Source: Sphingopyxis macrogoltabida (GTDB taxonomy: Bacteria; Pseudomonadota; Alphaproteobacteria; Sphingomonadales; Sphingomonadaceae). Taken from it: a stretch of DNA of 30,496 nt. The notes under the pieces are model-generated. The model did no database searches, was not told where the DNA came from, and saw nothing but the letters and a program-made list of their open reading frames with translations. This document shows positions 7,586-28,363 of this stretch, one piece after another (the first letter of the stretch is position 1; each line of letters starts with the position of its first letter). The DNA lies in contig NZ_CP012704.1 in NCBI RefSeq assembly GCF_001307295.1, forward strand, positions 1 through 30,496, in the 5' to 3' direction. The position numbers and the translations under genes were made by a program.

Positions 7586-7594
7586 GAGGTGGCC

Positions 7595-8588: not shown

Positions 8589-8609
8589 CGGCGGTACAGG
8601 GGGAAAAGA

Positions 8610-12738: not shown

Positions 12739-12790
12739 CCAGAAAACCCTAAGCCTGACCATACATTAGTTTACATATTTTGCATTTGGG

Positions 12791-12819
12791 TTGACATTTC
12801 TACCCTTCAGTGACACAAT
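12791..12819 (+). promoter_or_regulatory. Candidate promoter of the ietA-ietS operon
   Basis: TTGACA (12791-12796) is a perfect -35, and CACAAT (12814-12819) stands 17 bp downstream as a modest -10. Transcription would begin near ATG 12827, again implying little or no leader, as for higBA in the same island. Confidence 0.5.
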
Positions 12820-12826
12820 AATGGGT

Positions 12827-13951
12827 ATGGAAGTTGACAAGTCCCTTGTATCTGCGCTGATCGAAGCCGCCATGTCGGCGAATTACACCGGAGTCCGCCG
12901 TATCGGCGGCCAGATCGCCAAAAGCCTAGCGGAACAAGACGACCTGGAGGGCGCGAAGGCCCTCCAGTCGCTGCTCCGGAAGCGTGGCGTCCCCCTTCAA
13001 GCTTCGGGCTATGCCGAGGCGCTTCCGCGTGACGCAGGATCGCGACTACCCCTCATTGAAGAGGGGCAATGGCCGACAACGCCGATCATGCTCGGGGGGG
13101 AGGCTGGCCAGACCATCTCGCAGTTCATCGAGGATGCGCAGCATATCAGCTTGCTGGCCGAGAAGGGCGTTTCCGCGCGCCTTGGCCTGTTGCTTTACGG
13201 CCCGCCAGGAACGGGGAAAACCCTGCTGGCGGGACATATCGCGGCGTCGCTGCAACGGCCGCTCTACGTCGCCCGTCTTGATTCCCTGATCTCGTCTCGA
13301 CTTGGCGAAACCGCCAAAAATGTCCGGGGGATATTCGATTTCGTGCCTGCTCGTAACGCGGTGCTGTTCCTCGACGAAATGGACGCCATTGCAAAGCTTC
13401 GCGATGATCGGAACGAGCTGGGCGAGCTAAAGCGTGTCGTGAACACCGTTCTTCAGGGGCTCGATTCCCTGACGGACGACGTGGTGACCGTCGGCGCGAC
13501 CAACCATCCACACCTCCTCGATCCCGCCATTTGGCGGCGCTTTCCCTACAAGGTGAAGCTGGATCTTCCCGATGAGGACGTGCGCGCCAGCATGTGGGAG
13601 CATTTCCTGTTTCAGGAAGATGCCCTTCACAAAGACAATGCGCGCTTGCTGGCGCGGGTTTCAGAAGGGCTGAACGGCGCGGATATCGAGAATATCGCGC
13701 TCGCGTCACGGCGGCGGGCGATCCTCAGTGACCGCGAGGTCGATCTGGCGCGTATCCTTCTCGCGGTTAGCGGATCAAAAACCGGCAGCCCACGCCTGCT
13801 CGACAGCCGGGACCTGGAAACGGCGGATAAGAAGGTTCTGACCCGCCTGCTCCACGAAAAGGGCGGCATCGGCCAAGCCGAGATTGGCAAGATCGTCGGT
13901 GTCAGTCGTCAGATGGTGCACCGCTATCTGAAGGAGGCGATCGATGGTTGA
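12827..13951 (+). CDS. ietA: AAA-family ATPase, IetA-like (antitoxin/defence partner of IetS)
   Basis: A 374-residue single AAA+ module: Walker A GPPGTGKT at 125-132, Walker B VLFLDEMD at 179-186, a sensor-like VGATNHP and an arginine-finger-like IWRRFPYKVKL. The C-terminus (GQAEIGKIVGVSRQMVHRYL) looks like a helix-turn-helix, which is unusual for a protease-associated ATPase and may allow autoregulation. The pairing with a subtilisin-like protease gene directly downstream matches the IetA/IetS pair, described first as a plasmid-stability toxin-antitoxin system on pTiC58, where the ATPase homologue is the antitoxin, and later as an anti-phage system. The start is taken at ATG 12827; ATG 12821 is equally possible. 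It overlaps ietS by 8 bases. Confidence 0.78.
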   Translation: MEVDKSLVSALIEAAMSANYTGVRRIGGQIAKSLAEQDDLEGAKALQSLLRKRGVPLQASGYAEALPRDAGSRLPLIEEGQWPTTPIMLGGEAGQTISQFIEDAQHISLLAEKGVSARLGLLLYGPPGTGKTLLAGHIAASLQRPLYVARLDSLISSRLGETAKNVRGIFDFVPARNAVLFLDEMDAIAKLRDDRNELGELKRVVNTVLQGLDSLTDDVVTVGATNHPHLLDPAIWRRFPYKVKLDLPDEDVRASMWEHFLFQEDALHKDNARLLARVSEGLNGADIENIALASRRRAILSDREVDLARILLAVSGSKTGSPRLLDSRDLETADKKVLTRLLHEKGGIGQAEIGKIVGVSRQMVHRYLKEAIDG

Positions 13952-15686
13952 TACTCCACGGCGGCCGCTGCTGAACCCCGTTCTGCGCTTCATCAAGGAC
14001 CCCAAACCGGAAGGGGTGTCCGGCGGCGGAAAGAACGCGAGCAGCATCAAGACGGACCGCCTGCCCGAACAGCGGCGCGTGCTGTCTCGACAGTTCCTTG
14101 CCCTGTCCGAAGAGACGGCGCAGCGCCCCCGGTTCGATGGACGCGTTGTGCTCTACGCGGCGATGTTCGACGACTCCCTTGCGCCCAGCTACACGCCCTC
14201 GGACCTCTTTAGCCCGACGCGGGATGCGCGGCTCATTGCTCCTTATCGGTCGGGATACCTCGTCGAAGTGGCGGCGAACCAGCTTCCCGCTTTTGCGCGC
14301 CTCGTGCAGCGCACGGACCTGGCCAAGGAACAGGTGGACATCTCTCGCATCGAAGCCGTCCGCTTTTTCGAGAACGAGGATACCACCGGAGCCACGTCTC
14401 TGGACGAGATTTGGGATGCTGCGCCGGAAACCAAGGGAGGCAGGGCCTTCACAGTCTGGCTCATGCCTCTGCGCGGCCGCGATGCCTCAGAAGAACTGAT
14501 CGAGCGCTTTGCTGCGCTCCGCGATGGCACGATCACACCGCCGCCGCCTCTTCTGGCGGGCGTCGATCTCGACGCCGAGAGCGATGTTCCGGTCGTGATG
14601 CGGCGCAGCCTGCGTGCGGCGGGCGCGAGCGGCGACCGCATTAATCTCGCGATGCGGGCTTATCGCCTGCGCCGTCGGGCGCGCACAACGGTTCTCGTTG
14701 CGTCGCGGGCCGCGCTTGGCCAGCTTGTCGCGTCCGGCACCGTATTCCGTATCGAGCCGGTACAGCCGATAAGCTCCACCTCGCCCGGGGAGGGTCGGGA
14801 GCCGGACCGCCCTTTACCGGAAAACTTGACGATGCTGCCAATCGTCGGCGTCGTTGATGGCGGCATGACGGCGGGGTCCTACCGTCATGCAGAGGCATGG
14901 CGCGCGCCGCCGCTCGTCGCTGATGGCGCGGCCGATACCCAGCATGGAAATTGGGTAACCTCTCTCGTGGTGCAGGGTCATGACTGGAACAACAATCTCA
15001 CCCTGCCGCCGCTCTACTGCCAGGTCGGCACGGCCCAAGCCCTCGCAAAGCAAGCGTCGGGGGTCTTCGTCGACCCTCAGGATTTTATCGCCTATGTGGA
15101 TGGAGTGATGGCAGCAAACCCGGACACGCGGGTTTGGAATTTCTCCCTCAATCAGGCCTACGCCTGCGATCTCGAAGCCGTGAGCGCGCTCGGGCATGAT
15201 ATTGCCTTGCTGGCGCGCAAGCACCGCGTGCTGCCCATCATCTCCGTAGGCAACAAGCCGGGCTCCCGGCTTCAGCCGCCCGCCGATTGCGAAGCGGCGA
15301 TCACAGTCGGAGGCCGGAGTCACGACGGCAACGGCGATCCGGCGGGGGAATGTCCCGTGAGCCTGTGTGGGCCAGGGCCGTCCAGTATGCTCAAGCCCGA
15401 CCTCTCGCATTTTTCGCACGTCCGCGTCTTGGGCGGGCATCTCATTCGGGGGTCGAGCTTCGCAACGTCCCTCACGTCGCCGCTCGCTGCACACACGATG
15501 GAGCGGGTGCGCGACGCCTCTCCGGACCTTGTGAAGGCTCTGCTGCTGCACAACTCGGACGGGATGAACTTCGATCCGGCCATGGGCTTTGGCACCCCGT
15601 CGGCCGCCTCGCTGCCCTGGGAGTGCCGACCTGGCTTTGTTACGCTGCAATGGCGCGCGACGCTTCGCCCTGGCGCAGCCTATTAG
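13944..15686 (+). pseudogene. ietS: Subtilisin-like serine protease IetS, 5' part cut by Tn3 insertion
   Basis: This is the N-terminal 580 residues of an S8-family protease. The whole catalytic triad lies here: D305 in GVVDGGM, H334 in QHGNWV, and S505 in RGSSFAT; VGNK supplies a probable oxyanion asparagine. The frame ends at a TAG created where the transposon joins the target, the final G being the first base of the transposon. Joining residue 579 to the segment from 19790 restores an uninterrupted 757-residue protein. In IetAS systems the protease is the toxic effector restrained by the ATPase. The truncated product could still be a folded, perhaps active, catalytic domain, but it lacks the C-terminal 178 residues, so function is uncertain. 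Confidence 0.82.
15681..15685 (+). repeat. Target-site duplication, left copy (TATTA)
   Basis: TATTA immediately precedes the left end of the transposon and is repeated at 19790-19794 immediately after its right end. A 5-bp duplication is the hallmark of Tn3-family insertion. Confidence 0.9.
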
Positions 15687-15723
15687 GCCCAGTCGGCCCG
15701 AAGCTGCGATTTTGGTCATCTTG
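15686..15723 (+). repeat. Transposon left inverted repeat
   Basis: Begins GGCCCAGTCGGCCCGAAGCT and continues to 15723. It matches the right end in all but two positions, near 15716 and 15720. Confidence 0.92.
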
Positions 15724-15772
15724 GAGAACACGTCGGGAACGGGCTGGTTGTTGTTGACGATCGCCCATGCGA

Positions 15773-15801
15773 GGAACGACGTTCCGCTCCGATAAGGGAG
15801 C
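15773..15801 (+). promoter_or_regulatory. Dyad elements upstream of tnpA
   Basis: GGAACGACGTTCC (15773-15785) is a palindrome, followed directly by GCTCC (15786-15790) pairing with GGAGC (15797-15801). A TTGACG lies at about 15754. These may be the tnpA promoter-operator or a hairpin over the ribosome site AAGGGAG, limiting transposase translation. Confidence 0.4.
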
Positions 15802-15807
15802 GGCGTT

Positions 15808-18717
15808 ATGAGCCTTGGCGTTTCGAGTGGGGATCTGATCGGCTCCTGGAGCCTGAGTTTTTCGGACATCGCGTTCGTGACCGGCAAAGCGGAGACGGCA
15901 CGACTGGGATTGGCGGTTCAGCTTAGATTTTTCGCCGGGCATGGCTTCTTTGTGCCGGATCATGCGTCGATACCCTCCGACGGTGTCTTGTATCTGGCGG
16001 AGCAACTTGGTCTCGATGCCAAATCCGTGAACCACTATGATTTTTCCGGGCGCACCGCCCGCCGGCATTGCGCGGAGATTTTGCGGCATCTCGGGTTCCG
16101 CCGTATGACGCAGACGGATCGCAGGGCGTTGTCGAGGTGGATTTCCGACGATCTTTGTGCGGGCGGGCAGCCGATCAATGCCATGCTCGAGCATGTTTTC
16201 CTGTGGTGCCGCGACCGCCGTATCTATGGGCCGTCGCGCAAGGAGCTGGAACGCCTCGTCCGTTCGCAACGACACCTCTATCTGGAGGCCCTGTTGGCCC
16301 GAGTCCGCGATCGGCTTGCGCCGGATGCGGTCGCCTTGCTGGAAGCCTCGCTCGCCGATCCCGATGGCCCGACCGGCTTCAACACGATGAAGGGGGATGC
16401 AGGTCAGGCGACGCTCGAAAACATTCTTGGCGTGACCGCCAAACTCGCCTTTATCCAACGGCTTGCTCTTCCCCGAGATTTCCTATCGGTCACGGGCAAG
16501 GCATGGGTCGATCAGATCGTTCGCCGGGTTGCCGGCGAGAAAGCCTCGGAGATGCGCCGGCATGTACCGGCGCGCCAGCTCGGGCTCTATGCCGTTTATC
16601 TGATGGCGCGGGAAGCTCAGCTTACGGATGCGATGGTCGACCTGCTGATCGAGACGGTCCATAAGATCGGATCGCGCTCGAAACGCAAGGTGGTGGGCGA
16701 TATCGCGAAAGACATCGAGCGGGTCTATGGCAAGGAGCGACTCCTGGTCGAGATTGCCAGCGCTTCGATCGACGATCCATCCGGGCGCATCTGCGATGTC
16801 ATTTTCCCAATCGCCGGCAAGGACAAACTGGCGGCGATCATCAAGGAAAGCCAGGCAAAGGGCGCCTTGGATCGGCGGATCTACAAGGTGATGCGGAGGT
16901 CATGGGCCAATCATTATCGCCGTATGCTGCCAAGCCTGCTTTCGGCACTGGAGTTCCGGTCGAACAACGCCGTGTGGCGTCCGGTGCTGGCGGCCCTGGA
17001 CTGGATCAGAAGCAAAGTGGATGATGGATGCCGCTACGTGCCGCCGCACGCAGTGCCGGTCGACGAGGTCATTCCGGCGAGATGGCGCAGTTCCGTCATT
17101 GATGAAGAGGGGCGCGTAAACCGGATCAGTTATGAGCTTTGTGTCCTCGCGCAACTGCGCGATCGCATCCGTTCTAAGGAAATCTGGGTTGTCGGGGCGG
17201 ACCGATACCGCAATCCCGATGACGATCTTCCCAAGGACTTCGATGCGCGGCGAGAAGCATATTACACAGGATTGAACCTGACGGCGGATGCGCGTGCATT
17301 TTCAAGCGCCATCCGGGAAGAGCTTGCTCAGGAACTGTTGCTCCTCAATGCCAATATTCCCCGGAACGACAAGGTTCGGCTGCTGTGGCGCGGCGAGAAC
17401 CGTATATCTCTCACCCCGTTCAAACCCTTGCCCGAACCCAGGGGTCTCGCCTCGATCAAGACCGAGATCGGCCAACGCTGGCCGATGACCGGGCTGCTCG
17501 ACGTACTGAAGGAGGCTGCCCTTGATACGGGACTTCTCGAAGCGTTCGAAACATCGGCCTCGCGTGTTGCACTGCCGAAAACCGCGCTGGATCAACGTCT
17601 CCTGCTATGCCTCTACGGCCTGGGAACGAATGCCGGGCTCAAGCGGATCGCCGGCGCCACCCCCGATGTCAGCTATGAAGAGCTGCTGCATGTCCATCGC
17701 CGCTTCGTTCATGCCGCGGCGCTCAAGGAGGCGTGTGCCAGGGTTGCGAATGCGACCCTGGCAATCCGCAATGCTGCAGTCTGGGGGGACGCCGGCACGG
17801 CCTGTGCGTCAGATTCCACAAAGTTCGGAGCCTGGGATCGCAACCTGATGACGGAATGGCATGCGCGTTATGGTGGACGGGGCGTCATGATCTACTGGCA
17901 TGTCGAACGACGCGCGACATGCGTCTATTCCCAGCTCAAGCGCTGCTCTTCCTCCGAGGTCGCCTCCATGATCGAGGGCGTGCTGCGCCATTGCACCGAC
18001 ATGGAAATCCAGCGACAATATGTTGATAGTCATGGCCAAAGCGCGGTTGGCTTTGCATTTTGCCGGCTTCTCGGATTTGAGCTTGCACCCCGCCTGAAAG
18101 CGATCGCTCGCCAGAAGCTGGCTCTTCCCGATGTCGGCATGCGAACGCGGCTTCCCCACTTGCAGCCGATCCTCTCCAGTCCGATCAACTGGGATGAGAT
18201 CGAGCAGCAATATGACGAGATGGTCAAATATGCAGCCGCGATGCAGACAAAAACCGCCGACCCGGAGGCGATCCTGCGCCGGTTTAGCCGCTCCGAGGTG
18301 ATGCACCCGACCTACAAGGCGTTGAGTGAGCTGGGCCGCGCGGTCAAGACGATCTTCCTGTGCCGGTATCTGCGCGAGGAGTCCTTCCGCCGCGAAATTC
18401 ATGAAGGCCTGAATGTCGTTGAAAACTGGAACAGTGCCAATGGGTTCGTTTTCTTCGGCAAGGGCGGCGAGATCGCCACTAACCGCATCGATGAGCAGCA
18501 GCTCTCGGTCCTGGCGCTACATTTGCTGCAAGCGTCGCTTGTCTATGTGAACACCCGAATGCTTCAGAGCGTGCTGGTGGAACCGAAATGGACGGGCCGG
18601 ATGACGCCGGATGATTATCGCGGCCTCACACCGCTGATTTACAGCCACGTCAATCCTTATGGCCGCTTCGACCTCGATCTGAATAGCCGGATCGATTTTG
18701 GGCGGCTTGCTGCCTGA
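15808..18717 (+). CDS. tnpA: Tn3-family transposase
   Basis: A 969-residue transposase, full length for the family. The DDE catalytic residues can be placed at D669 (CASDSTKFG), D740 (YVDSHGQS) and E872 (LNVVENWN). The downstream block [19 protein letters not shown] and the tail [19 protein letters not shown] are also characteristic. It acts on the two terminal inverted repeats in replicative transposition, forming cointegrates. An AAGGGAG lies before ATG 15808. No internal stop or frameshift is visible, so it should be active. It reads in the same direction as the interrupted ietS and could be partly served by ietA-ietS transcription. Confidence 0.93.
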
Positions 18718-18859
18718 CCGGGGCCTTTCCGCTCGCACCATTTGGGTGCACCCGAACGTGACGATCGGAAGTGACATATACGACATGTCACAAAAGGGTG
18801 GTTCCGTCACCAATGTTACTGTACGAGGGCAAAGCCACCCTAATGTGACGGATTTGCCC
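18718..18859 (+). other. Putative resolution (res) site between tnpA and tnpR
   Basis: The gap holds several dyads expected of resolvase binding sites: GTGACA (18771-18776) facing TGTCAC (18786-18791), and CCGTCAC (18804-18810) facing GTGACGG (18845-18851). Spacing varies as in subsites I-III of res. The region probably also contains the tnpR promoter. Confidence 0.6.
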
Positions 18860-19726
18860 ATGACCCGCGTCGGCTACGCCCGCGTCAGCACCATCGACCA
18901 GGATCTCGACATCCAGGTTGCCCGGTTGAAGGCAGCGGGCTGTGAAATCCTCCGCTCCGAAACAGGCTCGGGCGCATCGCGCACTGGACGCACGGAGCTT
19001 GAGACGATCATGCAGTTCCTGCGCGCCGATGACGAACTCGTCGTCCTGCGTCTCGATCGGCTCGGTCGCTCCACACGCGATGTTCTCAATCTGGTTCATG
19101 AACTCGACCAGAAGGGAGCCTCATTGCGGGTGCTTGAGCCGGAGGTGACGACGGCCGGAAGCATGGGGCGGATGGTGATCACCATTCTGGGCATGGTCGC
19201 GGACATGGAACTGACGTTCATCAAGGACCGGCAGCGCGCCGGGATCGAGGCGGCGCGCGCCGAAGGCGTCTACAAAGGCCGGAAGAAAAACATCGATGAC
19301 GATGAAATCCGACGCCGGATCACCGCCGGCGCGAGCAAGGCCAGCGTCGCGCGCGACCTCAAGATCTCAAGAATGACCGTCTATCGGGCGCTTGACGTCA
19401 TTCCTTCAAGGATCGGGCTGCCGGAAAAGCCGCCTTCTGTCACCATCGCCCTGCATCTGACCATCGAGAACTTCAACAAGCATGGTCGTGGCAGAAAGCC
19501 CGCTCGCGAGCGCATTGAGGCGATGCTGGAGCGGGATTACCAGATGCAAAAGACCGGGAACTGCGATTACACGCTGACCGTCGCCTATGATCAGGGTGCC
19601 GATGGCGTCAGCCTCGATGATGAGATCGCATCTCTCCAGACAGAGATGTTCAACATCGCAGAGAGCTACAGGTGCTCGATCGAGACCGATGTTTACGAGA
19701 TTGGAGGACAAGAGCGAGCCTGGTAG
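18860..19726 (+). CDS. tnpR: Serine resolvase with a C-terminal extension
   Basis: A 288-residue serine recombinase that resolves cointegrates at res. The N-terminal catalytic domain carries the nucleophile S10 in GYARVSTIDQ, with RLDRLGRSTRD and the long E-helix region MVADMELTFIKDRQRAGI. The helix-turn-helix is at about 153-180 (SKASVARDLKISRMTVYRAL). Beyond it lies a further ~100 residues (HLTIENFNKHGRGRK, a CDYTLTVAYD strand, ending GGQERAW) absent from the classical ~185-residue resolvases; its role is unknown. ATG 18860 is chosen because the GYARVS block must be near the N-terminus. Confidence 0.9.
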   Translation: MTRVGYARVSTIDQDLDIQVARLKAAGCEILRSETGSGASRTGRTELETIMQFLRADDELVVLRLDRLGRSTRDVLNLVHELDQKGASLRVLEPEVTTAGSMGRMVITILGMVADMELTFIKDRQRAGIEAARAEGVYKGRKKNIDDDEIRRRITAGASKASVARDLKISRMTVYRALDVIPSRIGLPEKPPSVTIALHLTIENFNKHGRGRKPARERIEAMLERDYQMQKTGNCDYTLTVAYDQGADGVSLDDEIASLQTEMFNIAESYRCSIETDVYEIGGQERAW

Positions 19727-19751
19727 ATCGCCATGTTCAATCTTTGTTCTT

Positions 19752-19789
19752 CAACATGGCCAAAATCGCAGCTTCGGGCCGACTGGGCC
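19752..19789 (-). repeat. Transposon right inverted repeat
   Basis: Read on the minus strand it begins GGCCCAGTCGGCCCGAAGCT like the left end. The last base of the element is 19789. Confidence 0.92.
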
Positions 19790-19794
19790 TATTA
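19790..19794 (+). repeat. Target-site duplication, right copy (TATTA)
   Basis: Matches 15681-15685 exactly and directly follows the right inverted repeat. Confidence 0.9.
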
Positions 19795-20326
19795 TTGGGA
19801 GTTGCCAATCCCGGATTCCTTGAAAAGGACCGGGAAGCTGAAGGGCGCAGGCGCGCTCACCGCCATTCTCAATCCGCACCCGATGGTGACGGATTACGCC
19901 GGCCCAAATTACTTCAGTGTTCGCCTCGCGGCAGCGCTTCAGTATCAGCGCGGCCGCACGCCGAAAGGCGCGGCGAAATTCCACAATCTCCTGGGCTCTC
20001 TCGATACCGAAAAGATCACAGAGCAGGAAGCGCGCACGGTCGATCACAAATGGAGCCCGATCCGGCACCACAAGAATGACTTTCAGAGCGTTAGCTTCGA
20101 GGGAGATACGCTGCGCGTCTATGCCCGCGTCTACGCGCGGGACCTGTACCTCTACGGGTACACTGGCACCGAAGAAATCCCCGAAATGGAAACGGCTTTC
20201 GTTCTGTCGCTCGGCACCAGCGATGAGAACGATGATGTCTACAACGAGCTGCGCGACCAGCTCGGTGCCTTTGTCGAAACGGCGGTTGTCGAGGCCGATA
20301 TCGACGTGGACAATGAAGGATTCTGA
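19790..20326 (+). pseudogene. ietS: Subtilisin-like serine protease IetS, 3' part
   Basis: This segment encodes the C-terminal 178 residues of the protease, starting YYWELPIPDSLKRTGKL in the frame that continues the 5' part. Its content (LTAILNPHPMVTDYAGPNYF, then RHHKNDFQSVSFEGDTLRVY and LVLS-like strands) is a beta-rich C-terminal domain without catalytic residues, of the kind that follows S8 domains in this group. The stretch is open backwards into the transposon end to about 19733, so a short fusion product is possible from a non-ATG start, but no convincing ribosome site is seen. It ends two bases before the DUF2188 gene. Confidence 0.8.
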
Positions 20327-20328
20327 GC

Positions 20329-20577
20329 ATGAGCAAGGACAAAGACAGGACAGTCTATCGGCGGCCCTCGGACAACAAATGGGTCGATAAGCGCAATGGC
20401 GCCGGGCGTGGTTTCGTATTCGACCGGCAAGCCGACGCGATCGCCTCGGGTCGCGAAAAGCTCGTCAACGCCAGGGGCGGCGAGCTGACCGTGAAGGGGC
20501 GGGAAGGGCGCATCCGCAGCAAGGACACGCTCGGCGGCGGCAACGATCCGGTGCCGCCACGCGACCGCGAGCATTGA
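20329..20577 (+). CDS. DUF2188 small protein
   Basis: An 82-residue basic protein with the DUF2188 pattern: YRRPSDNKWVDKRNGAGR, then QADAIASGREKLVNARGGEL and GREGRIRSKDTLG. Its function is unknown. The ATG follows the ietS stop after two bases, with AAGGA about eight bases upstream, so it is probably the third gene of the ietA-ietS operon and is now separated from its promoter by the transposon unless tnpA/tnpR transcription reads through. It ends one base from the convergent end of the integrase gene, with no terminator between them. Confidence 0.75.
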   Translation: MSKDKDRTVYRRPSDNKWVDKRNGAGRGFVFDRQADAIASGREKLVNARGGELTVKGREGRIRSKDTLGGGNDPVPPRDREH

Positions 20578-20578
20578 G

Positions 20579-21538
20579 CTAGATTAGCACCCGCTCAACC
20601 TCGTCGAGGCTGACCTCATCAGAGCGCCGATCATAAAGCTGCGTCGTGCGCGTCGAGGCGTGATTTGCCATCATCGCCGCTTTCTCCAGCGTGCCGCCGT
20701 TCTTCAGATAGGCGGTGATGCCGGTTGCACGGAATGAATGGTTGCCGATCGCCGTGGCAATGCCGGCGGCGGCAGCGCGCCGCCGCACCATGGCGAAAGC
20801 GTTGGCCTGCGGCAGCGCATTGGTGCTCAAGGCCCGCGTCCCACGAGCGATCGTGCGGAACAGCGGCCCTTTTGGATCGCCTCGCAAGGCGCAGCCGTCG
20901 ATATAGGCAATCAGATATTCCTCCAGGTTGTGGTGGCAGGGCATTTCGTGCCGCTTGCCGCCCTTTTCATGCAGCCGCACCCATAGGCGGCGGTTCTGCG
21001 TGAAAACGTCTTCCACCCGCATCTTCTCGGCCGCGCCGATGCGGCCGAAGCTGTAGATCATGAGCCCGATCAAGGCGCGGTCCCTAAGGCCTGCAGGCGT
21101 GGCCACGTCGATGCTGTCGAGCAGCATTCGCGCTTCATCCGGGGCGAGCACCGGCGTCTTGCCGCGCCTGACGCTATGCGACGGCCCGCGCACCGACGCG
21201 GCGGGATTCGATGGGACAATCTGGCCGACCACGAGCCAGTCGAAGAGGTGACGGATGGCTGCCAGGCGCAGCTTGGCCGTGGGCGCACTCCGTGCCGCTG
21301 TCAGCTCCTCGATGTAGCCCGCAACGTGTATTGGCTGCACGGCCGCGATCGACGTGATGCCTCGCGCTTCGCACCATGCCAGGAACTCGGCCGTCGCGCG
21401 GGCATAGGCCCGGCGCGTGTTGGGATTGCGGATGTTGGCCGTGAAGAATTCATAGAAGCGAACCCGCGCGCGCTCGCCCGCAACGGCGACGAGGGCGGGC
21501 AAAGCCGCATCTGGAGCCAAAGGGACGAGCTGGGTCAC
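20579..21538 (-). CDS. Tyrosine recombinase/integrase (XerC/D-like)
   Basis: A 319-residue tyrosine recombinase. The N-terminal SAM-like DNA-binding domain covers about 25-115 (NTRRAYARATAEFLAWCEAR). All catalytic positions are present: R166 (YSFGRIGAAE), K192 (HEKGGKRHE), H267 and R270 (NHSFRATG), H293 (MANHAST) and Y302 (TTQLYDRR). It could resolve plasmid multimers or move a neighbouring segment; no att core was identified. It starts at GTG 21538, overlapping the stop of the upstream beta-helix-like gene as GTGA, so the two are coupled. It is intact and its sequence is high GC like the backbone. Confidence 0.92.
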   Translation of the reverse strand: MTQLVPLAPDAALPALVAVAGERARVRFYEFFTANIRNPNTRRAYARATAEFLAWCEARGITSIAAVQPIHVAGYIEELTAARSAPTAKLRLAAIRHLFDWLVVGQIVPSNPAASVRGPSHSVRRGKTPVLAPDEARMLLDSIDVATPAGLRDRALIGLMIYSFGRIGAAEKMRVEDVFTQNRRLWVRLHEKGGKRHEMPCHHNLEEYLIAYIDGCALRGDPKGPLFRTIARGTRALSTNALPQANAFAMVRRRAAAAGIATAIGNHSFRATGITAYLKNGGTLEKAAMMANHASTRTTQLYDRRSDEVSLDEVERVLI

Positions 21539-21840
21539 CGCCGACCCTTCACGTGAGCAACCGGATCAATGATCGTCACCGCATCGGCAGACCGATCTGC
21601 CACGGCATCGACGGTGCCGAATATCTCGACACGGCCGCCATCGTTGATGACAACGCCATTGACCATTCCGTGGATGATCACGCGCGCTTTAGGCTCGATG
21701 ACGAGGTCGCCGGTGATCATGCCGTGCAGTACCAGCTTCCTTCCGGTACGCACCACAGCTCCCGCGGTGATCATGCCGTGCACGGCTAGGTCTTCGTCAA
21801 TCAACAAAGGGCCTTCGATCTTGTCGTTTACTGCCCGCAT
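21535..21840 (-). CDS. Small bactofilin-like/beta-helix repeat protein
   Basis: A 101-residue protein built of short repeats: HGMITAGAVV, HGMITGDLVI and HGMVNGVVIN, each followed by a polar turn and a V/I-rich strand, then VEIFGTVDAV. This resembles polymer-forming bactofilin-type right-handed beta-helices, but it is shorter than known cytoskeletal bactofilins. ATG 21840 is preferred (GGGGGCG just upstream) to the in-frame ATG 21969, because the segment between them contains an AT-rich palindrome that looks regulatory. The repeats show in the DNA as two 17-bp direct copies at 21712-21728 and 21766-21782. Coupling to the integrase is odd; function unknown. Confidence 0.6.
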   Translation of the reverse strand: MRAVNDKIEGPLLIDEDLAVHGMITAGAVVRTGRKLVLHGMITGDLVIEPKARVIIHGMVNGVVINDGGRVEIFGTVDAVADRSADAVTIIDPVAHVKGRR

Positions 21841-21868
21841 GAACGCCCCCTGATGTATCCGATAAAGG

Positions 21869-21890
21869 ACATTATCATATATGACAACGT
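21869..21890 (-). promoter_or_regulatory. AT-rich palindrome upstream of the beta-helix-like gene
   Basis: TCATATATGA (21875-21884) is a perfect 10-bp palindrome within an imperfect 16-bp one (TTATCATATATGACAA). It sits about 35-45 bases upstream of ATG 21840, where an operator-promoter would be expected. Weak evidence. Confidence 0.35.
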
Positions 21891-21959
21891 GAGCAAATCC
21901 GCTGATAGGGGTTGTGACACCAGCGACTTTCTCCGGGTGTGCCGAAGCAGGAGCAACCT

Positions 21960-22631
21960 TTAACCCCATGCGTCGAATTCATTCACAAATCTTGGAGAGA
22001 AGTCCCGGACCTGAACGTCACGCTCAGAGCCACTTAGTCGGTTTAGACAGCTCTGCACAATTTCGGCGAGGGGCATACTATTGGCCCATGCTCCTATCAC
22101 ATATTCGGGAGAAATCGGCTCGAGCACCTGAGTTTCCGCATCGGAGTAAGTCGTAAGAGCATCGGCAATGCCGGTATCCACGCGATAAGAATATCCGGTG
22201 AACCCGTTTGGATGAGATGACTCCGAGAACATTCTATTGAATGCCCAGGGACCGCCCAGAAAGCCCCGGTGATCGAGCATTTCACGCCGTGCAGCATTGC
22301 GAGCGTAGAAACGGCATTCATGCGTCCAAAGGACGCTGGGGCAGAGAAACAGGACGATCCAGTCAGTTCGACCCGACGCTGCTCGCTTGGCTTCAAACAT
22401 TCTATGGTTGATTGCGGAGATCGAAACAGAGATGGCTTGGTCTTCACCATCTAGGCGATGATCAATGCTGGTGTATGCGGGCATTCCGGCCGTTGATAGG
22501 TGAGCTCGACATAGCAAACCGTGCGCTATGATGTTGGGCAAATTGGGCGCTGGCGTGAAATGGCAAAGGTACTCGATGCCACGATAGGCGACGATCTCTC
22601 GAATTTTATCTCGATAGCCGATCTTTGCCAA
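21960..22631 (-). CDS. DarT-like DNA ADP-ribosyltransferase
   Basis: A 223-residue protein of the DarT (DUF4433) superfamily, enzymes that use NAD+ to ADP-ribosylate bases in single-stranded DNA and block replication. The NAD-binding block is CHFTPAPNLPNIIAHGLL, with H24 and N30 in the expected places. YTSIDHRLDG, ISVSISAINHRMF and WIVLFLCPSVLW follow. The late motif DAETQVLEPISPEYV (from 165) aligns with the family's QAEVQV element, giving E166 as the probable catalytic glutamate. The only suitable start is TTG 22631, two bases after the membrane-protein stop, implying low or coupled expression, common for toxins. No DarG macrodomain antitoxin is encoded nearby. Composition is AT-richer than the backbone. 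Confidence 0.75.
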   Translation of the reverse strand: MAKIGYRDKIREIVAYRGIEYLCHFTPAPNLPNIIAHGLLCRAHLSTAGMPAYTSIDHRLDGEDQAISVSISAINHRMFEAKRAASGRTDWIVLFLCPSVLWTHECRFYARNAARREMLDHRGFLGGPWAFNRMFSESSHPNGFTGYSYRVDTGIADALTTYSDAETQVLEPISPEYVIGAWANSMPLAEIVQSCLNRLSGSERDVQVRDFSPRFVNEFDAWG

Positions 22632-22633
22632 TT

Positions 22634-22918
22634 TCAGCGCTCCGACCGGTTTGCTTTCGCTTTCCTACGATTCCTCCAGATAGTTCTAATAATAGGCAAA
22701 GTGATACCTGCAATTGCATAGTCTATGAACATTGCAGCATTGAAGGCGTAGACCTTATCCCGTTGTGAAAACCATAGAACAAAGATTATTGCAAAAGCAG
22801 CTATGGAGCTCACCCATACCATTGGTCTGTAACTCTCAAAAATTCGCTTCCATACTGCCCATTCCATAATTTTACTAATTAGGTATAGAACAATTAGCCC
22901 TCCCGCTACAGCACCCAT
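22634..22918 (-). CDS. Small membrane protein of the Sel1-DarT cluster
   Basis: A 94-residue protein I do not recognise. It has about three hydrophobic segments: residues 2-18 (AVAGGLIVLYLIS), 33-50 (MVWVSSIAAFAIIFVLW) and 60-80 (MFIDYAIAGITLPIIRTI), and ends in a basic tail (RNRRKAKANRSER), predicting a cytoplasmic positive C-terminus. Its ATG overlaps the Sel1-protein stop as TAATG, with AAAAGGGG upstream, so it is translationally coupled. It might anchor the Sel1 or DarT-like protein to the inner membrane or act as the immunity component; this is inference from position only. Confidence 0.65.
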   Translation of the reverse strand: MGAVAGGLIVLYLISKIMEWAVWKRIFESYRPMVWVSSIAAFAIIFVLWFSQRDKVYAFNAAMFIDYAIAGITLPIIRTIWRNRRKAKANRSER

Positions 22919-24123
22919 TAAATCACCCCTTTAAGTTTTAAAAAGTTAAATACTTCTAGGTTTTTCAGAGACTTCATAGCCTCAGGCAGGCCTTGCTTTG
23001 AAGCCATTCCGTACCAATACTTCGCTTGTTTTATATTATCTATATCGTCTTGATCGAGATATTCAGCGCTGGCATCAATCTTGTCCATATACAGTTTACC
23101 CAGGTTGAACTGAGACCCCGCGTCACCGGACTTGGCCGCCATTTCGGTAAACATCGCTAAGTCATGCTGGACTTTGTCACTTCTCCGTTCCTTCGGAATA
23201 GAAAGCCCGGCTTGGGACAAGAATATCTGGCAGAATACATTTCCAGACAGCGCCCCGGCTCTGATGATTTCGCCGCCACGAGATTGGCCGAGACGTTCTA
23301 TAAGCTTCTTGGCCTCACCAACGCTGTTGGGAGGTCCGTCCTTCGGTTTTTGGCCAAAAATTCCTAACATCTCACCGCCTTCTAGAGGTTCATTATTGAA
23401 GAACGTATCTACGCCGCGCAGCGGCTGCGATCGATCCCCATACGGCGACTTTGCTATGATGTGCCCCACGATAGAGCAACGAGCCATGACGGCGAGTTTA
23501 TCGCTCACTCCCGATCGCCGCATCGCGACGTGCAGTTTATTTAGTCCATCGGTAATCTGATCTGCTGCTGACCCGGGTTTGAGACGGTTCAGGCCCCCGT
23601 CGTAAAATCCCGTGTCGATGCCCGTGCGTTTGACGAAATAATGTACAAAATCGAAATCACTGGTAGCAGCAGCATCCAATTCATAGGCGATGACGTCGAC
23701 TGTTGCGCCATACTTTCGGCAAATCACATCATAAAAACGAGCCGCACAAATCATGATTGAAGGGACCAAGCTGTCCCCAGAGGCCGCTTCTTCAGCGAAC
23801 TTCGCGAGATTGTCTGCTCCAAACCCACCTCGGTCAGCTGCCTCCAGCTGCCAGAGAACATCCTTCGCACGCGGATGCCCTGCTTCAGCTGCTTTATACC
23901 AACAGTCTGCCGCCAGGTCGAAGTCATACGGCGTTACGCTTCCTCCACCCCACAGAAGCGACAGATTGAAGAGTGCCGAGACATGTCCACCTCGCGCAGC
24001 GTTTCCGAAGTGAATACTTGCAGCACTGAAGTTTCCTTCTTGTATAGCTGCAACACCAGCAACATACTCTCCTTCAATTTGCTCTGATGAGCTAGTAAAG
24101 AACGGTTTTTGAAACTCAGCCAT
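22918..24123 (-). CDS. Sel1-like repeat protein
   Basis: A 401-residue protein with Sel1-like (TPR-related) helical repeats near both ends: SAASIHFGNAARGGHVSALF and ADCWYKAAEAGHPRAKDVLW in the N-terminal part, and SQFNLGKLYMD with QAKYWYGMASKQGLPEA near the C-terminus. The middle (about 110-290) is not obviously repetitive and holds the unplaced stretches DFVHYFVKRTG and ARCSIVGHIIAKSPYGD. No signal peptide is seen. ATG 24123 is chosen because GGGAGAAG lies just upstream; an in-frame start at 24159 is less likely. Sel1 repeats mediate protein contacts, and in this cluster it could be a sensor or adaptor for the DarT-like enzyme. GC is clearly lower than the flanking tra genes. Confidence 0.72.
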   Translation of the reverse strand: MAEFQKPFFTSSSEQIEGEYVAGVAAIQEGNFSAASIHFGNAARGGHVSALFNLSLLWGGGSVTPYDFDLAADCWYKAAEAGHPRAKDVLWQLEAADRGGFGADNLAKFAEEAASGDSLVPSIMICAARFYDVICRKYGATVDVIAYELDAAATSDFDFVHYFVKRTGIDTGFYDGGLNRLKPGSAADQITDGLNKLHVAMRRSGVSDKLAVMARCSIVGHIIAKSPYGDRSQPLRGVDTFFNNEPLEGGEMLGIFGQKPKDGPPNSVGEAKKLIERLGQSRGGEIIRAGALSGNVFCQIFLSQAGLSIPKERRSDKVQHDLAMFTEMAAKSGDAGSQFNLGKLYMDKIDASAEYLDQDDIDNIKQAKYWYGMASKQGLPEAMKSLKNLEVFNFLKLKGVI

Positions 24124-24202
24124 ATTCTTCTCCCGCAATGAGAAACGTATGCACAACAAGCCGTTTGGCGTATGCGCTGCGTGTTCTTTAGGGCCACCGT
24201 GC

Positions 24203-24904
24203 TTATTGGGGCTCCCTTGGCGCTACGCTGACGGTACATCGAACCGCCTGGCTCTCACGATCCGCGCGCTTCCGACACGCCTCCAGTGCCTCACGATTGG
24301 CGGCAACGATCCGGTCGCCCGCCGCCAGCGCAGCGAACGCGCTGGGCGAAGCGGCCTGCATCATGCGCTGTCCGCCTTCCCACATCGGCATGTTGAGCGG
24401 GCGCGCCGCCATCTTCTCCGGCCATTGCCAACTCGCTGGCACGGCGCGCGCCACGACGCCGGCGAACGCCGCCCAAAGCACCATGCCGAGCACCACGCCG
24501 CCGATCGCCGTCCACATCAGCCAGCGGTTCTGCTCGTCGCCGCGCCGCGCCGATGCCGTCACGCCCTGAAGCACCCGGATTGCGTCCTTCAGCTCGGCGG
24601 CTGCGGTCGCGATCGTCCGCCGGTCCTCGGCGCGGGCATCCGCACCTGCCGCCACGATCCGGTCAACGACATGGCGTGGGGTCGCTCCGTCCCGGGCCGC
24701 CGCCACCAGCGCGTCAGCGCGCTGCAAGGTGGCATCGATCTTCTGCACCATGCCCGCCAGCGTCTCGCTGTAATCGGGCTGCTCGGGGAGTTCGGCGCGC
24801 TCGACCGCCATCCGCTCGACTGCGCGGCGCAGCAGCGCCAGCTCGCCCTCCACCCGCGCGAAGGCTTCCTGGGCTGTCTCGGGTTCGTGCTCGTCCTCGC
24901 TCAT
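24203..24904 (-). CDS. DUF6118-like membrane protein downstream of traA
   Basis: A 233-residue protein resembling the DUF6118 proteins commonly encoded after traA on sphingomonad plasmids. The N-terminal ~115 residues are charged and helical (EAFARVEGELALLRRAVERM, DATLQRADALVAAARDG), likely coiled coil. One transmembrane segment follows (WLMWTAIGGVVLGMVLWAAF, about 132-151), then a PEKMAARPLNMPMWEGGQRM block and a C-terminal domain with two cysteines. It may be a membrane-tethered transfer accessory protein; no experimental role is known to me. ATG 24904 has AGGGAGACAGG upstream. It starts 34 bp after the traA stop, so it is in the same operon. Confidence 0.68.
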   Translation of the reverse strand: MSEDEHEPETAQEAFARVEGELALLRRAVERMAVERAELPEQPDYSETLAGMVQKIDATLQRADALVAAARDGATPRHVVDRIVAAGADARAEDRRTIATAAAELKDAIRVLQGVTASARRGDEQNRWLMWTAIGGVVLGMVLWAAFAGVVARAVPASWQWPEKMAARPLNMPMWEGGQRMMQAASPSAFAALAAGDRIVAANREALEACRKRADRESQAVRCTVSVAPREPQ

Positions 24905-24937
24905 CCTGTCTCCCTCACGCACCCGAAAGCGCGAAAC

Positions 24938-27862
24938 CTATCGGCTCAGTCCCCGGTCACGCTCGCGATCCGGCCCCAGCGATCTCGTCAGCGCGTCACC
25001 GACCGCGCGGTCCTTCTCCAGCTTCAGCGCCAGCTCGGGCGCGCGGCGGCGGAGTGCGGATTCCAGCTGCGGATCGCGCCCGATCGCACCGGCGACCTTC
25101 GCCATGTTGCCGCGCAACCGCTCGGCACCGGCACGGTCGCCCGCCCGCTCAAAGGCGGCACGGTCGCGCTGCATCGCCTTCCATGCTTCCACGAAGCGGC
25201 CTGCGCGGGCATCCGGGTCAAGCCAGACGCGCTGCTCCTCGGCCATCGCGCGCGCCGCTCCACCAGTGTTGCCGCCGGCGGCCTGCTCAATGAGCTTCGG
25301 ATCGCGCCGGAGCGCGGAAGCGAGGTCGCGCGCGGCATGAGAGCGGCCCGCGTCCAGCGCCTCGCCGGCCTTGCGCAACGCGCTCTCCTGATGCGGCAGC
25401 ACCGGCAAGCCCTTGGCGCGCATCCGGCCTATATCGGCCGTGGCGCGCGCATAGCGTTCGATCGCCTCGTCCTGGCCCGGCTTGCCGCCGGTCGCGGGCT
25501 CCCGTTCCGGCGCGGACGTCTTCTGCGGTGCCCGGGGCCGGAAGCCGTCGAACATGCCCTTGGCCTTGTCGCGCACCTTGGCGGCGATCTCCCGCGCGAG
25601 TTCCGGAAACCGGATCTCGCGCCGCTCGGCGAACGCGCGCGCCCGGTCATTGTCGGAAGGGGCGGCATAGTCGCCGGCCATGTCCTTGGCGCGGTCACGC
25701 GACAGGACGCGGGCGAGCTGGCGCTGATCGGTGAAGTCGTCGCGCCCATAATGGAGCGACACCCCGTCGCGATGCCGCGACAGCGCGACATAGGCGCCGT
25801 GCCGGTCCATCCCCGGCGTCGCCAGCACATGCGCGCGATCGACGGTCACGCCCTGCGATTTATGGATGGTCGCGGCATAGCCATGATCGACATGGGCATA
25901 GTCCTTGAGGTCGAAAGCGACACGGCTGCCCCCGTCGAGCCGCACCGCCATGCGGCCTTCGCTGACATGCTCCAGCGTGCCCAGCGTGCCGTTCTTCACG
26001 CCCATGCTGCGCTCGTTGCGCAGGAACATGATCCGGTCGCCGGATGCGAAGTCGCGCCGGCCCCGCTCGACGGTGACGCCCACGTCCTGGCCCAGCTCGC
26101 CGCCCGCCCGCATCCGCCCGCGCGCCTCCTCGTTGAGCGCGCGCACCTCGGCATTGGTGTGGGTGAGGATGATGCGGGTCTTGTCAGGCTCGGCTTGGCG
26201 CTGGCGATCCCAACCGTCCACCAGCTCGCCCCGCGCCGCCTCGCGCGTGTCGGCCGCCTGCACCATGCCCCGGCTCTCATAGGCGTGCAGCGCCTCACCG
26301 GTGCGGCCCGTGGCGAGCGAGCGCGTCGCCTCCTTCTGCCAGTCGCCCCGCTGCCGGCGAACCTCGGTGATCTCGGCCGCGCCGTGGCGCTCACTGATCG
26401 ACCGGAACGCCGCTCCGGCTTCGATCGCCTGCATCTGCTCGGGGTCGCCCACCAGCACCACCTTCGCGCCGGCGTCGCGGGCATGGGACAGCACCCGCTC
26501 CATCTGGCGGGTGCCGATCATGCCCGCCTCGTCCACCACCAGCACGTCGTTGCGGGACAGCTGGTCACGGCCCTGCGCCCACGCATGTTCAAGGCTGGCG
26601 ATGGTGCGGGACTGGATGCCCGATCCGCCCTCAAGGTTCTCGGCCGCGATCCCGGACAAGGCCGCGCCGCGCACCTGATAGCCCTCGCGCTCCCACGCCT
26701 CGCGCGCAACGCCCAGCATCGCCGACTTGCCGGTGCCGGCATAGCCGATGACCGACGTCAGCCCTTGACCCTCGGTGATACGGTCGAAGGCGTCGCGCTG
26801 CTCGCCCGACAGCACCAAGCCGCGCCCTTCCGCCGTCTCCAGCGCCCCGGTGCGATGCGACACGGACACGCCATGCCTGGCGCCACGCGCCAGCTCGTCA
26901 CCGGCGCGCTCAAGCTGTGCTTCGGTCGCGATCATCTCGCGGGATGTGAACCGCTCCTGGTCGCGTCCGTCCGTGCCTAGCGCCACCAGTTCGGGACTGG
27001 CGCGCACCGCCGCCATCACCTGGTCGAACTGATCCTTGCCGTCCGAATGGCGGAACGCGAACACAGCCAGGTCGCGGGTGGTGAAGGTGGCCTGCTGCCG
27101 CGTGATCGCATCGAGCGCGACATTCGGGTCCGCGACGATCTTCTCGCCGTTCTCGCGCGCGATCCGCAGATGATCTTCGGCGCGTCGGTGCGGCTCGTCC
27201 TCCTCCAGACGGCGCGTTCCCATCGGCCCGATCTTGTGCTGCGGCTCAAGCTGGATGCCCTGATCGGCATAGGAGCGATGATCGATCCGGCCCTCCAGCC
27301 CAAGCTCAGCCATGCGCTCGTTCACGTGCGCCGCCCACGCCTCGCGCCACTCCTGCAACAGCTCGGTGCCGTTCCAATCCCGGACCTTCTTGCCGAACCC
27401 TTCAGGCCCGACTTCCCGCATCGTCATCATGACATGCGCGTGCGGCTTCGGGCTGCCGTCGTCCGCCTTGTCCCAATGCACGTTGAGGTCGGCGACCATC
27501 CCGCGATCCACGAACTGCTTCTGCACGAAATCGCGGGCGAGGCTCACGCCCTGCTGCTGATCCATCTCGCGCGGAATCGAGAACTCCACCTCGCGGGCAA
27601 GCTGCGCGTCCTTGCGCTTCTCGCCTGCCTCCACCTCGTTCCACAGCGCAGTGCGGTCGTTTAAACGCTTCGGCGCGCCCTCCGGAAATATCACCTCGGA
27701 GTGGATCACACCGGCCTTGTTCGAGAAGTCGTGATGGCGATTCAGCTTCTCATCGAACAGCCGCGATGCCGAGCGATAGGCAGCGGACGCGACGGCGCTG
27801 GAGCCCTTCGCGCGGCTGATAACCTTGGCGCTGAAATGATAGATCGCCATCGCGACCGCCAT
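24938..27862 (-). CDS. traA: TraA, Ti-type conjugative relaxase-helicase
   Basis: A 974-residue relaxase that nicks oriT and unwinds the transferred strand. The MobA/MobL-type relaxase domain opens with MAIYHFSAKVISRAKGSSAV, has a likely catalytic Y29 (ASAAYRSAS), and the metal-binding histidines H129, H141 and H143 (HWDK, KPHAHVMM). The C-terminal helicase belongs to superfamily 1 (RecD/TraI-like), with Walker A GYAGTGKS at 373-380, DE box D444-E445 (VLVVDEAGMIG) and a late YAATIHKSQGVTVDRAHV motif. ATG 27862 (with AAGAAG upstream) is preferred over GTG 27907, which would place the coding start on the candidate oriT. It is transcribed divergently from traC-traD-traG. Confidence 0.93.
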   Translation of the reverse strand: MAVAMAIYHFSAKVISRAKGSSAVASAAYRSASRLFDEKLNRHHDFSNKAGVIHSEVIFPEGAPKRLNDRTALWNEVEAGEKRKDAQLAREVEFSIPREMDQQQGVSLARDFVQKQFVDRGMVADLNVHWDKADDGSPKPHAHVMMTMREVGPEGFGKKVRDWNGTELLQEWREAWAAHVNERMAELGLEGRIDHRSYADQGIQLEPQHKIGPMGTRRLEEDEPHRRAEDHLRIARENGEKIVADPNVALDAITRQQATFTTRDLAVFAFRHSDGKDQFDQVMAAVRASPELVALGTDGRDQERFTSREMIATEAQLERAGDELARGARHGVSVSHRTGALETAEGRGLVLSGEQRDAFDRITEGQGLTSVIGYAGTGKSAMLGVAREAWEREGYQVRGAALSGIAAENLEGGSGIQSRTIASLEHAWAQGRDQLSRNDVLVVDEAGMIGTRQMERVLSHARDAGAKVVLVGDPEQMQAIEAGAAFRSISERHGAAEITEVRRQRGDWQKEATRSLATGRTGEALHAYESRGMVQAADTREAARGELVDGWDRQRQAEPDKTRIILTHTNAEVRALNEEARGRMRAGGELGQDVGVTVERGRRDFASGDRIMFLRNERSMGVKNGTLGTLEHVSEGRMAVRLDGGSRVAFDLKDYAHVDHGYAATIHKSQGVTVDRAHVLATPGMDRHGAYVALSRHRDGVSLHYGRDDFTDQRQLARVLSRDRAKDMAGDYAAPSDNDRARAFAERREIRFPELAREIAAKVRDKAKGMFDGFRPRAPQKTSAPEREPATGGKPGQDEAIERYARATADIGRMRAKGLPVLPHQESALRKAGEALDAGRSHAARDLASALRRDPKLIEQAAGGNTGGAARAMAEEQRVWLDPDARAGRFVEAWKAMQRDRAAFERAGDRAGAERLRGNMAKVAGAIGRDPQLESALRRRAPELALKLEKDRAVGDALTRSLGPDRERDRGLSR

Positions 27863-27875
27863 GATGCACTTCTTA

Positions 27876-27910
27876 GCGCACGTCGGCAACGACGTATAAG
27901 CGCGCACTCA
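27876..27910. other. oriT: Candidate origin of transfer (oriT)
   Basis: ACGTCG-GCAA-CGACGT (27880-27895) is a perfect 6-bp hairpin. It is followed at once by ATAAGCGCGCACT (27896-27908), resembling the nic core of IncQ and Ti-type oriT (TAAG/TGCGCCCT). The position in the divergent traA-traC gap is where Ti-type plasmids have oriT. The nick would fall near 27900/27901. The sequence is seen; the function is inferred. Confidence 0.65.
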
Positions 27911-28020
27911 TCACTCGCATCGCTCCTGCTGATTGACTGCCGTGCATTCCCATTATGGGTTGCCTGCCTTTTCCTCTTTGCTAGGCTACGGTGGTCCTGA
28001 CGCGGAAAGGAGAAAGCACC

Positions 28021-28344
28021 ATGCGCAAGGTACGCGACTATGACGCGGAGCTGAAAGCGCTGGAGAGCCGCGCCAAGGCGATTAAGGCACGTCGCATTGA
28101 ACAGCTTGGCCAGCTTGTCATCGCCGCCGGGGCCGATGTGCTCGACATGGAAACCCTCGCCGGTGCGCTGCTCGATGCCACCGCTTCCAAGGACGCGGAA
28201 GCGAAGGAGGCGTGGCGCGCGAAGGGCTCCGCTTTCTTTCAACGGCGCGGGCGCAAAGGTGGCCGGACTGCTGGCGGCAACGGCGACAGCGGGAGTGCGC
28301 AACCGGGCGATGATCCAGCGTCTGGAAGCGTCGCAGCGTCGTAG
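28021..28344 (+). CDS. traC: TraC-like conjugal transfer accessory protein
   Basis: A 107-residue protein with a helical N-terminal region (MRKVRDYDAELKALESRAKA) followed by RRIEQLGQLVIAAGADVLDM and LAGALLDA. The order, basic helix then a GQLVIAAGAD-like strand, resembles TraC of Ti-type transfer systems, which assists the relaxase at oriT. The tail is Gly/Ser-rich and low complexity. An AAAGGAG lies nine bases before ATG 28021. The similarity is modest, and the symbol rests largely on its position between traA and traD. Confidence 0.6.
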   Translation: MRKVRDYDAELKALESRAKAIKARRIEQLGQLVIAAGADVLDMETLAGALLDATASKDAEAKEAWRAKGSAFFQRRGRKGGRTAGGNGDSGSAQPGDDPASGSVAAS

Positions 28345-28363
28345 CGATACGCGAGCTTGGGTC

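What the first reader, a model, noticed from the sequence alone, without database searches (positions are those of the whole stretch)
13944..20326. Tn3-family transposon cuts an IetS-type protease gene, with exact frame reconstruction
Seen: TATTA at 15681-15685 and 19790-19794, inverted repeats of about 38 bp inside them, and protease sequence on both sides. Deleting the 4104-bp element plus one TATTA gives GCC-TAT-TAT-TGG, an uninterrupted 757-residue protease. Known: AAA-ATPase/subtilisin pairs of this kind (IetAS) act in plasmid stability and phage defence. Inference: the system was intact until a recent insertion, and the host population may have lost a costly toxin.
Basis: partly seen in the sequence, partly recalled or inferred. 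Interest (0 to 1): 0.75.

Follow-up and report, generated by a model that had tools for sequence, protein, structure and literature searches.

The report
Transposon-split plasmid toxin and plasmid deletion
A common jumping gene of soil bacteria landed in, and cut, a plasmid toxin gene, and the same genome appears to hold a second, smaller plasmid in which everything beyond the jumping gene's right edge, including the plasmid-transfer genes, has been deleted.

Summary
A complete 4104-bp Tn3-family element (15686-19789) with a perfect 5-bp target duplication lies inside an ietS-like subtilase gene. The two halves, searched apart, project to exactly adjacent bases in 45 of 45 related loci (43 distinct), so the gene was once continuous. 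The element is common: 66 plasmid records hold a match at 99% or more, and it sits once on each of four contigs of this genome.

The larger point lies outside the finding. The window is a circular 30.5-kb plasmid. A second contig of the same assembly, C6 (19,860 bp), is 100% identical to it but lacks 19790-30425. The gap begins at the transposon's right end and removes the severed ietS end, relaxase and coupling-protein genes. This is the signature of Tn3 adjacent deletion, a known reaction (PMC9330008 passages), here apparently coexisting with its parent.

"Lost a costly toxin" is plausible, not shown. The putative catalytic triad stays in the left half, but the cut falls in a conserved C-terminal beta-rich domain. 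Verdict: a real but ordinary insertion. That C6 is circular rests on contig structure; no reads were seen.

The parts
515..1468 (-). repA, replication initiator (kept in C6)
   Evidence: Pfam RPA 263.4 bits; identical copy on C6
12791..13951 (+). ietA-like AAA ATPase, intact (antitoxin side)
   Evidence: PADLOC IetA E 8.5e-99
13944..15686 (+). left half of ietS-like subtilase gene, with D305, H334, S505; stop codon completed by first base of the element
   Evidence: Pfam Peptidase_S8 residues 313-550; PADLOC IetS E 1.4e-38; alignment A1
15681..15685 (.). target duplication, left copy (TATTA)
15686..19789 (+). Tn3-family transposon, 4104 bp
15686..15730 (+). left terminal inverted repeat
   Evidence: 45 bp, 93%
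15808..18717 (+). tnpA, Tn3 transposase
   Evidence: Pfam DDE_Tnp_Tn3 452.4 bits; NCBIfam NF033527 829.8 bits; annotated WP_006961814.1 in the identical element
18718..18859 (.). intergenic stretch with dyad repeats, likely res site (inference)
   Evidence: sequence printed
18860..19726 (+). tnpR, serine resolvase
   Evidence: Pfam Resolvase 120.8 bits on the longer ORF 18698-19726; start as annotated for WP_006961816.1
19745..19789 (-). right terminal inverted repeat; the C6 deletion begins at its outer edge
19790..19794 (.). target duplication, right copy (TATTA)
19790..20326 (+). right half of ietS-like gene (C-terminal beta-rich part); as listed its ORF opens at ATG 19733 inside the element
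   Evidence: PADLOC IetS E 4.2e-11, profile 587-733; 45 of 45 contiguity; model of a relative
20329..20577 (+). DUF2188 gene directly after ietS
   Evidence: Pfam PF09954; beside ietAS in 20 of 45 loci, plus 1 weak and distant hit
19790..30425 (.). 10,636-bp segment absent from contig C6
21960..22631 (-). DarT-like gene (lost in C6)
   Evidence: Pfam DarT E 1.2e-9
24938..27907 (-). TraA-type relaxase/helicase (lost in C6)
   Evidence: Pfam MobA_MobL 234.3 bits; similar plasmids annotate traA
27991..28344 (+). traD (lost in C6)
   Evidence: Pfam TraD
28871..30439 (+). VirD4/TraG-type coupling protein; all but its last 14 bp lost in C6
   Evidence: Pfam T4SS-DNA_transf 283 bits

Best explanation
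A Tn3-family transposon that circulates among sphingomonad plasmids transposed replicatively into an A/T-rich pentamer inside ietS of this plasmid and duplicated the five bases. This cut the subtilase-type toxin after its catalytic domain and inside its C-terminal beta-rich domain (shown by sequence and by the model of a relative; loss of activity inferred). Later, on some plasmid copies, the same element attempted intramolecular transposition: its right end joined a target near 30426, deleting everything between (19790-30425). The product is C6, 19,860 bp, with repA, a parA-like gene, ietA and the left ietS half but without relaxase, traD, most of the coupling-protein gene, the DarT-like gene and the right ietS half. 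The reciprocal circle would carry no repA and was lost (inferred; no second full copy of the segment is in the assembly). C5 and C6 carry the same replicon and were both present in the sequenced culture (inferred from the assembly).
For: Perfect duplication and element borders. Halves adjacent in 45 of 45 loci, 43 distinct. C6 = window 30426-30496 + 1-19789 at 100%, ending at the element's last base. The stretch 30426-30496 was found in this genome only on C5 and C6, so no other repeat explains the branch there. The deleted segment was found in full only on C5. C5 has matched 5-bp flanks; C6, if circular, does not, so C5 is the parent. A review states that such deletions begin precisely at one terminus and leave the element without direct repeats, and names Tn1/Tn3 (PMC9330008, passages of section 5.2.1). 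Unmatched flanks are not rare for this element: 9 of 23 copies surveyed.
Against: No reads were seen and the circularity of C6 is stated in no output. A linear contig ending at a repeat edge would look the same at its right end. The junction has a 1-bp ambiguity (a T at both 19790 and 30426). The C6 target pentamer has 2 G/C of 5; 13 of the 14 perfect duplications have 0 or 1. The putative catalytic triad is intact in the left half, so loss of toxicity is not shown.
Confidence: 0.8

Rival explanations
1. C6 is an assembly artefact: a partial duplicate of C5 cut at the edge of the repeated transposon, with no deletion plasmid in the cells.
For: The element is a repeat present once on each of four contigs, and assemblies often break at repeat edges (general knowledge). 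C6 is not stated to be circular.
Against: 15.7 kb of plasmid sequence outside the element is reported twice at 100% identity, and the left end of C6 lies exactly 71 bp before the linearisation point of C5 in a stretch found nowhere else in the genome. An assembler has no reason to start there unless reads branched there (inference).
Confidence: 0.17
2. The split gene still works: the left half keeps the whole protease domain and the right half is made as its own ORF starting in the transposon, so that two pieces act together or the left piece acts alone.
For: Putative triad residues are in the left half. The right ORF starts at ATG 19733, 6 bp after the resolvase stop.
Against: The cut falls in a strand (578-585) of the C-terminal part as modelled in a relative, and that part is as conserved as the rest (26 of 178 invariant against 68 of 579). 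No sigma-70-like promoter was found in 15400-20600 (0; shuffles mean 1.7), though the scan covers that type only. C6 lacks the right half altogether.
Confidence: 0.12
3. The smaller form came first, and the 30-kb plasmid arose by fusion at the transposon.
For: Tn3 elements do fuse replicons (established knowledge).
Against: C5 has matched flanks, and both ietS and the coupling-protein gene run on across the borders in C5 only; relatives have ietS continuous.
Confidence: 0.02

Closest known systems
Tn3-family unit transposons (Tn1/Tn3) and their adjacent deletions
   Same: Transposase family, 5-bp duplication, resolvase, deletion that starts at one terminus and leaves no matched repeats (PMC9330008 passages)
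   Different: Here deleted and parental plasmids appear in one assembly; only tnpA and tnpR are annotated wholly within the identical 4104 bp elsewhere, so no passenger gene is evident
IetAS of pTiC58 (Yamamoto et al. 2009, not held; known here only through citing papers)
   Same: AAA ATPase plus subtilase pair on a plasmid
   Different: Toxin gene cut; a DUF2188 gene follows ietS; scores below the NCBIfam IteA/IteS cutoffs. Not compared at sequence level here
SgiAT of Salmonella genomic island 1
   Same: Subtilase toxin and AAA-ATPase antitoxin; stability role (PMC5006074, passages including the abstract)
   Different: Chromosomal island; intact; not compared at sequence level here
Mycoplasma AAA-ATPase/subtilisin-like module
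   Same: Same kind of protein pair, toxin reported toxic in laboratory hosts (PMC8562856 passages)
   Different: Chromosomal; not compared at sequence level here

Membership tests
Tn3-family transposon | Tn3-type DDE transposase of about 950-1000 aa | tested here: met
   969 aa, NF033527 829.8 bits vs cutoff 500
Tn3-family transposon | Terminal inverted repeats of about 38-48 bp | tested here: met
   45 bp, 93%
Tn3-family transposon | 5-bp target duplication | tested here: met
   Window copy; 14 of 23 other copies, C3 and C4 of this genome among them; 9 of 23 without
Tn3-family transposon | Resolvase and res site | tested here: inconclusive
   Resolvase met; res only suggested by dyads in 18718-18859
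IetAS toxin-antitoxin/defence pair | AAA ATPase of the IetA family directly before the protease gene | tested here: met
   PADLOC IetA E 8.5e-99; but NCBIfam IteA 299.4 bits, below its equivalog cutoff of 510
IetAS toxin-antitoxin/defence pair | Full-length IetS-family subtilase | tested here: not met
   Only as two halves in this window; PADLOC IetS E 1.4e-38 and 4.2e-11; NCBIfam IteS 125.3 and 34.9 bits vs cutoff 900. 34 of 41 genome-collection relatives have one full-length frame
IetAS toxin-antitoxin/defence pair | Toxicity of the protease and neutralisation by the ATPase | not testable with these tools
   needs the bench
Transposon-mediated adjacent deletion | Deletion starts precisely at one terminus; element left without matched repeats | tested here: met
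   C6, the second part only if C6 is circular; 1-bp ambiguity
Transposon-mediated adjacent deletion | Reads across the new junction | not testable with these tools
   no reads held

The most novel reading that the evidence does not exclude
Breaking ietS was the licensing step. IetAS is reported to determine stability and incompatibility of its plasmid (title of the pTiC58 paper as cited), so once the transposon had cut the toxin, cells could tolerate a shrinking, same-replicon derivative (C6) beside or in place of the parent. One transposon would thus first disarm the plasmid's addiction module and then prune its transfer genes.
Probability: 0.12. Interest if true: 0.6.

Novelty: new member of a known kind. 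Interest (0 to 1): 0.4.

Why it matters
Insertion and adjacent deletion by Tn3 elements are known, but a genome that seems to hold the parent plasmid and its transposon-edge deletion together, with the toxin of an addiction/defence module as the insertion site, gives a natural pair in which to measure plasmid stability, copy competition and loss of transfer. It also warns that gene-presence calls of IetAS, whether as a defence or a stability system, can count broken copies: each half here still matches the IetS profiles.

Tried and rejected
Empty-site search at DNA level in plasmids: the 12791-15685 stretch matches only in ietA, at 69-79% identity in 17 records, and the right flank not at all. 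No phage match for 12791-15685. A second ietS copy in the genome that could stand in: none beyond C5 and C6. An explanation of the C6 start by a repeat elsewhere: none. Sphingobium cloacae plasmids that share a replicon were compared for a second example (pSCLO_4 and pSCLO_5 only in part): they share long near-identical stretches, and the left pentamer of pSCLO_7 equals the right pentamer of pSCLO_4, suggestive of exchange at the element, but I could not show that it made them; the other agreements of pentamers are between unrelated strains or, for C5 and C6, by construction. The idea that toxin genes break more often than antitoxin genes: among 43 related loci with an ietA match (of 45), ietS is not one open frame in 5 (4 independent; three of the five are frameshifts that could be sequence errors) and ietA in none; ietS is twice as long, and by length alone four of four would fall in ietS about one time in five (0.19). 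Not significant. Two loci (L042, L066) had no ietA match and were left out of that count. Searches for a published name of the element or a report of such deletions in sphingomonads (listings only, 12 of 280 papers shown) showed nothing that fits by title; passages of PMC3906814 were not relevant. IetAS paper searches: (listings). The organism's name was not found: one search warns that its records may be left out. PDB fold search of the relative's model: subtilases; the top rows include Tk-SP (3afg) and Kex2, which have C-terminal beta domains (recalled), but TM-scores in the 50 rows listed are at most 0.39 by query, so only the protease fold is claimed.
Full report
What was checked. TATTA is at 15681-15685 and 19790-19794 and the terminal repeats match over 45 bp at 93%. 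Inside lie a 969-aa Tn3 transposase and a serine resolvase. The same 4104 bases are annotated elsewhere with WP_006961814.1 and WP_006961816.1.

The element is common. In the plasmid collection 159 records match the 12791-20600 stretch, 66 of them with a best place of at least 99% identity; the 40 rows listed all match over the element and all are sphingomonads. I fetched flanks for 21 of these records, chosen so that several plasmids of one strain were included, and added the copies on C3 and C4 of this genome. 22 of these 23 copies are identical over all 4104 bases and one has an identity of 0.9998. 14 of 23 have a perfect five-base duplication and 9 of 23 do not. With the window's copy it is 15 of 24. 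In the 298 genomes of the family that were searched, 45 have any match, mostly short; full-length identical copies were listed in three, the own one included (which scored only two candidates per genome). In this genome full-length copies sit once on each of C3, C4, C5 and C6; C1 and C2 show only short matches.

The gene was continuous. The left half (579 residues) and the right half (178 residues) were searched separately. In rhizobial plasmids the left match ends and the right match begins on neighbouring bases. A scan of one genome per species gave 41 loci (which warns that the own genome may be left out). With four plasmid loci, 45 of 45 give a distance of zero between the projected ends; 43 of these are distinct. 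Among the closest is the chromosome of Labrenzia sp. THAF82, 80% and 89% identical in the two halves. In L036 only 37 residues of the right half match, and L070 has an insertion elsewhere in the gene, but both are continuous at the point of the window's insertion.

What the cut does. Residues D305, H334 and S505, which fit the subtilase triad (motif recalled), are invariant in the five-sequence alignment that includes the window, and the same numbers are invariant in 27 intact relatives. All lie in the left half. A model of the intact Labrenzia relative (mean pLDDT 81.7, pTM 0.85, 27 sequences) has a beta-rich C-terminal part from about residue 565; the insertion point falls in its second strand (578-585). 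Confidence is low around residues 441-500, inside the protease domain. The C-terminal part has 26 invariant positions of 178, against 68 of 579 in the left part. So the protease domain is whole but an equally conserved domain is cut off. Loss of function is likely, not proven. IetS-type proteins are toxins and IetA-type ATPases antitoxins in the SGI1 and mycoplasma systems (PMC5006074 passages; PMC8562856 passages). The founding pTiC58 paper is cited there for stability and incompatibility but is not held.

What the finding missed. The genome has six contigs; the window is the whole of C5 (30,496 bp). C6 (19,860 bp) equals window 30426-30496 followed by 1-19789 at 100% identity. This shows, first, that the end of C5 runs on into its start, as in a circle. 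Second, C6 lacks exactly 19790-30425, and its last base is the last base of the transposon. The stretch 30426-30496 was found in this genome on C5 and C6 only, and the missing segment in full on C5 only; C4 has diverged relatives of parts of it at 73-76%. If C6 is circular, its transposon has unlike flanks (TATTA on the left, TCGAT on the right), whereas C5 has matched ones. So C5 is the parent and C6 the deletion product. The junction is uncertain by one base because a T stands at both 19790 and 30426. The 71-bp offset between the starts of C5 and C6 looks like an assembly-graph overlap, which would require reads branching at 30426; that is inference.

Mechanism. Intramolecular replicative transposition by Tn3-family elements deletes DNA from one terminus to a target and leaves an element without direct repeats (PMC9330008, passages of section 5.2.1). 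C6 fits both statements. The lost segment carries the right ietS half, DUF2188, a tyrosine recombinase, a DarT-like gene, TraA-type relaxase, TraD and all but the last 14 bp of the coupling-protein gene. What remains has repA (identical on both), a ParA-like gene, a GmrSD-type gene, HigB-like and HTH genes, methylase-like and helicase-like genes, ietA and the left ietS half. The reciprocal circle would lack repA, which explains its absence (inference).

Limits. C6 could be an artefact, though two copies of 15.7 kb of sequence outside the element are hard to explain that way. Two plasmids with one replicon are expected to segregate (established knowledge), so they may be a mixed culture rather than one cell. 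The link between loss of IetS and tolerance of C6 is only a hypothesis.

Side result. A DUF2188 gene stands directly after ietS in seven loci (and the window) and upstream of ietA, on the other strand, in thirteen: 20 of 45 loci, plus one weak, distant hit; 24 have none. The profile was made from such neighbours, two of the loci are duplicates and the rhizobial loci are close kin, so the count overstates independence. Against that, 36 other loci in hand (332 kb) gave none. One paper search listed 8 of 16 papers, none holding the word DUF2188.

Verdict. Observation confirmed, interpretation partly supported, kind of system known. The apparently coexisting deletion derivative is the interesting part.

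Noticed in passing
20329-20577; L030-L033, L039, L040, L045 (after ietS); L026, L027, L029, L046-L048, L052-L054, L056-L058, L068 (before ietA): DUF2188 genes neighbour ietAS in two different arrangements (20 of 45 loci, duplicates included), which suggests a possible third component; the one paper search made for it listed no paper with that word.
   Followed up: partly
L070:7089-7868: ietS of Azospirillum sp. B21 appears to be interrupted by another element whose frames read like a DDE (IS5-type, recalled) transposase: an independent interruption of ietS.
   Followed up: partly
L036:3560-3583: In a Rhodobacteraceae MAG ietS loses homology after about 37 residues of the right half and then stops: another C-terminal loss.
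   Followed up: partly
L100 (pSCLO_7), L102 (pSCLO_4): In Sphingobium cloacae the five bases left of the transposon on pSCLO_7 equal those right of it on pSCLO_4, as after an exchange at the element; neither copy has matched flanks.
   Followed up: partly
18860-19726: The resolvase runs about 110 residues beyond its Pfam HTH match (made on the longer ORF 18698-19726), a C-terminal extension without a Pfam hit.
   Followed up: no
21960-22631: DarT-like gene; none of the neighbouring genes scanned gave a macrodomain (DarG-type) hit.
   Followed up: no
3072-12738: Dense run of likely defence or toxin-antitoxin genes: HTH protein, GmrSD-type, HigB-like with HTH partner, two methylase-like genes and a helicase-like gene on a plasmid that also carries ietAS.
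   Followed up: no
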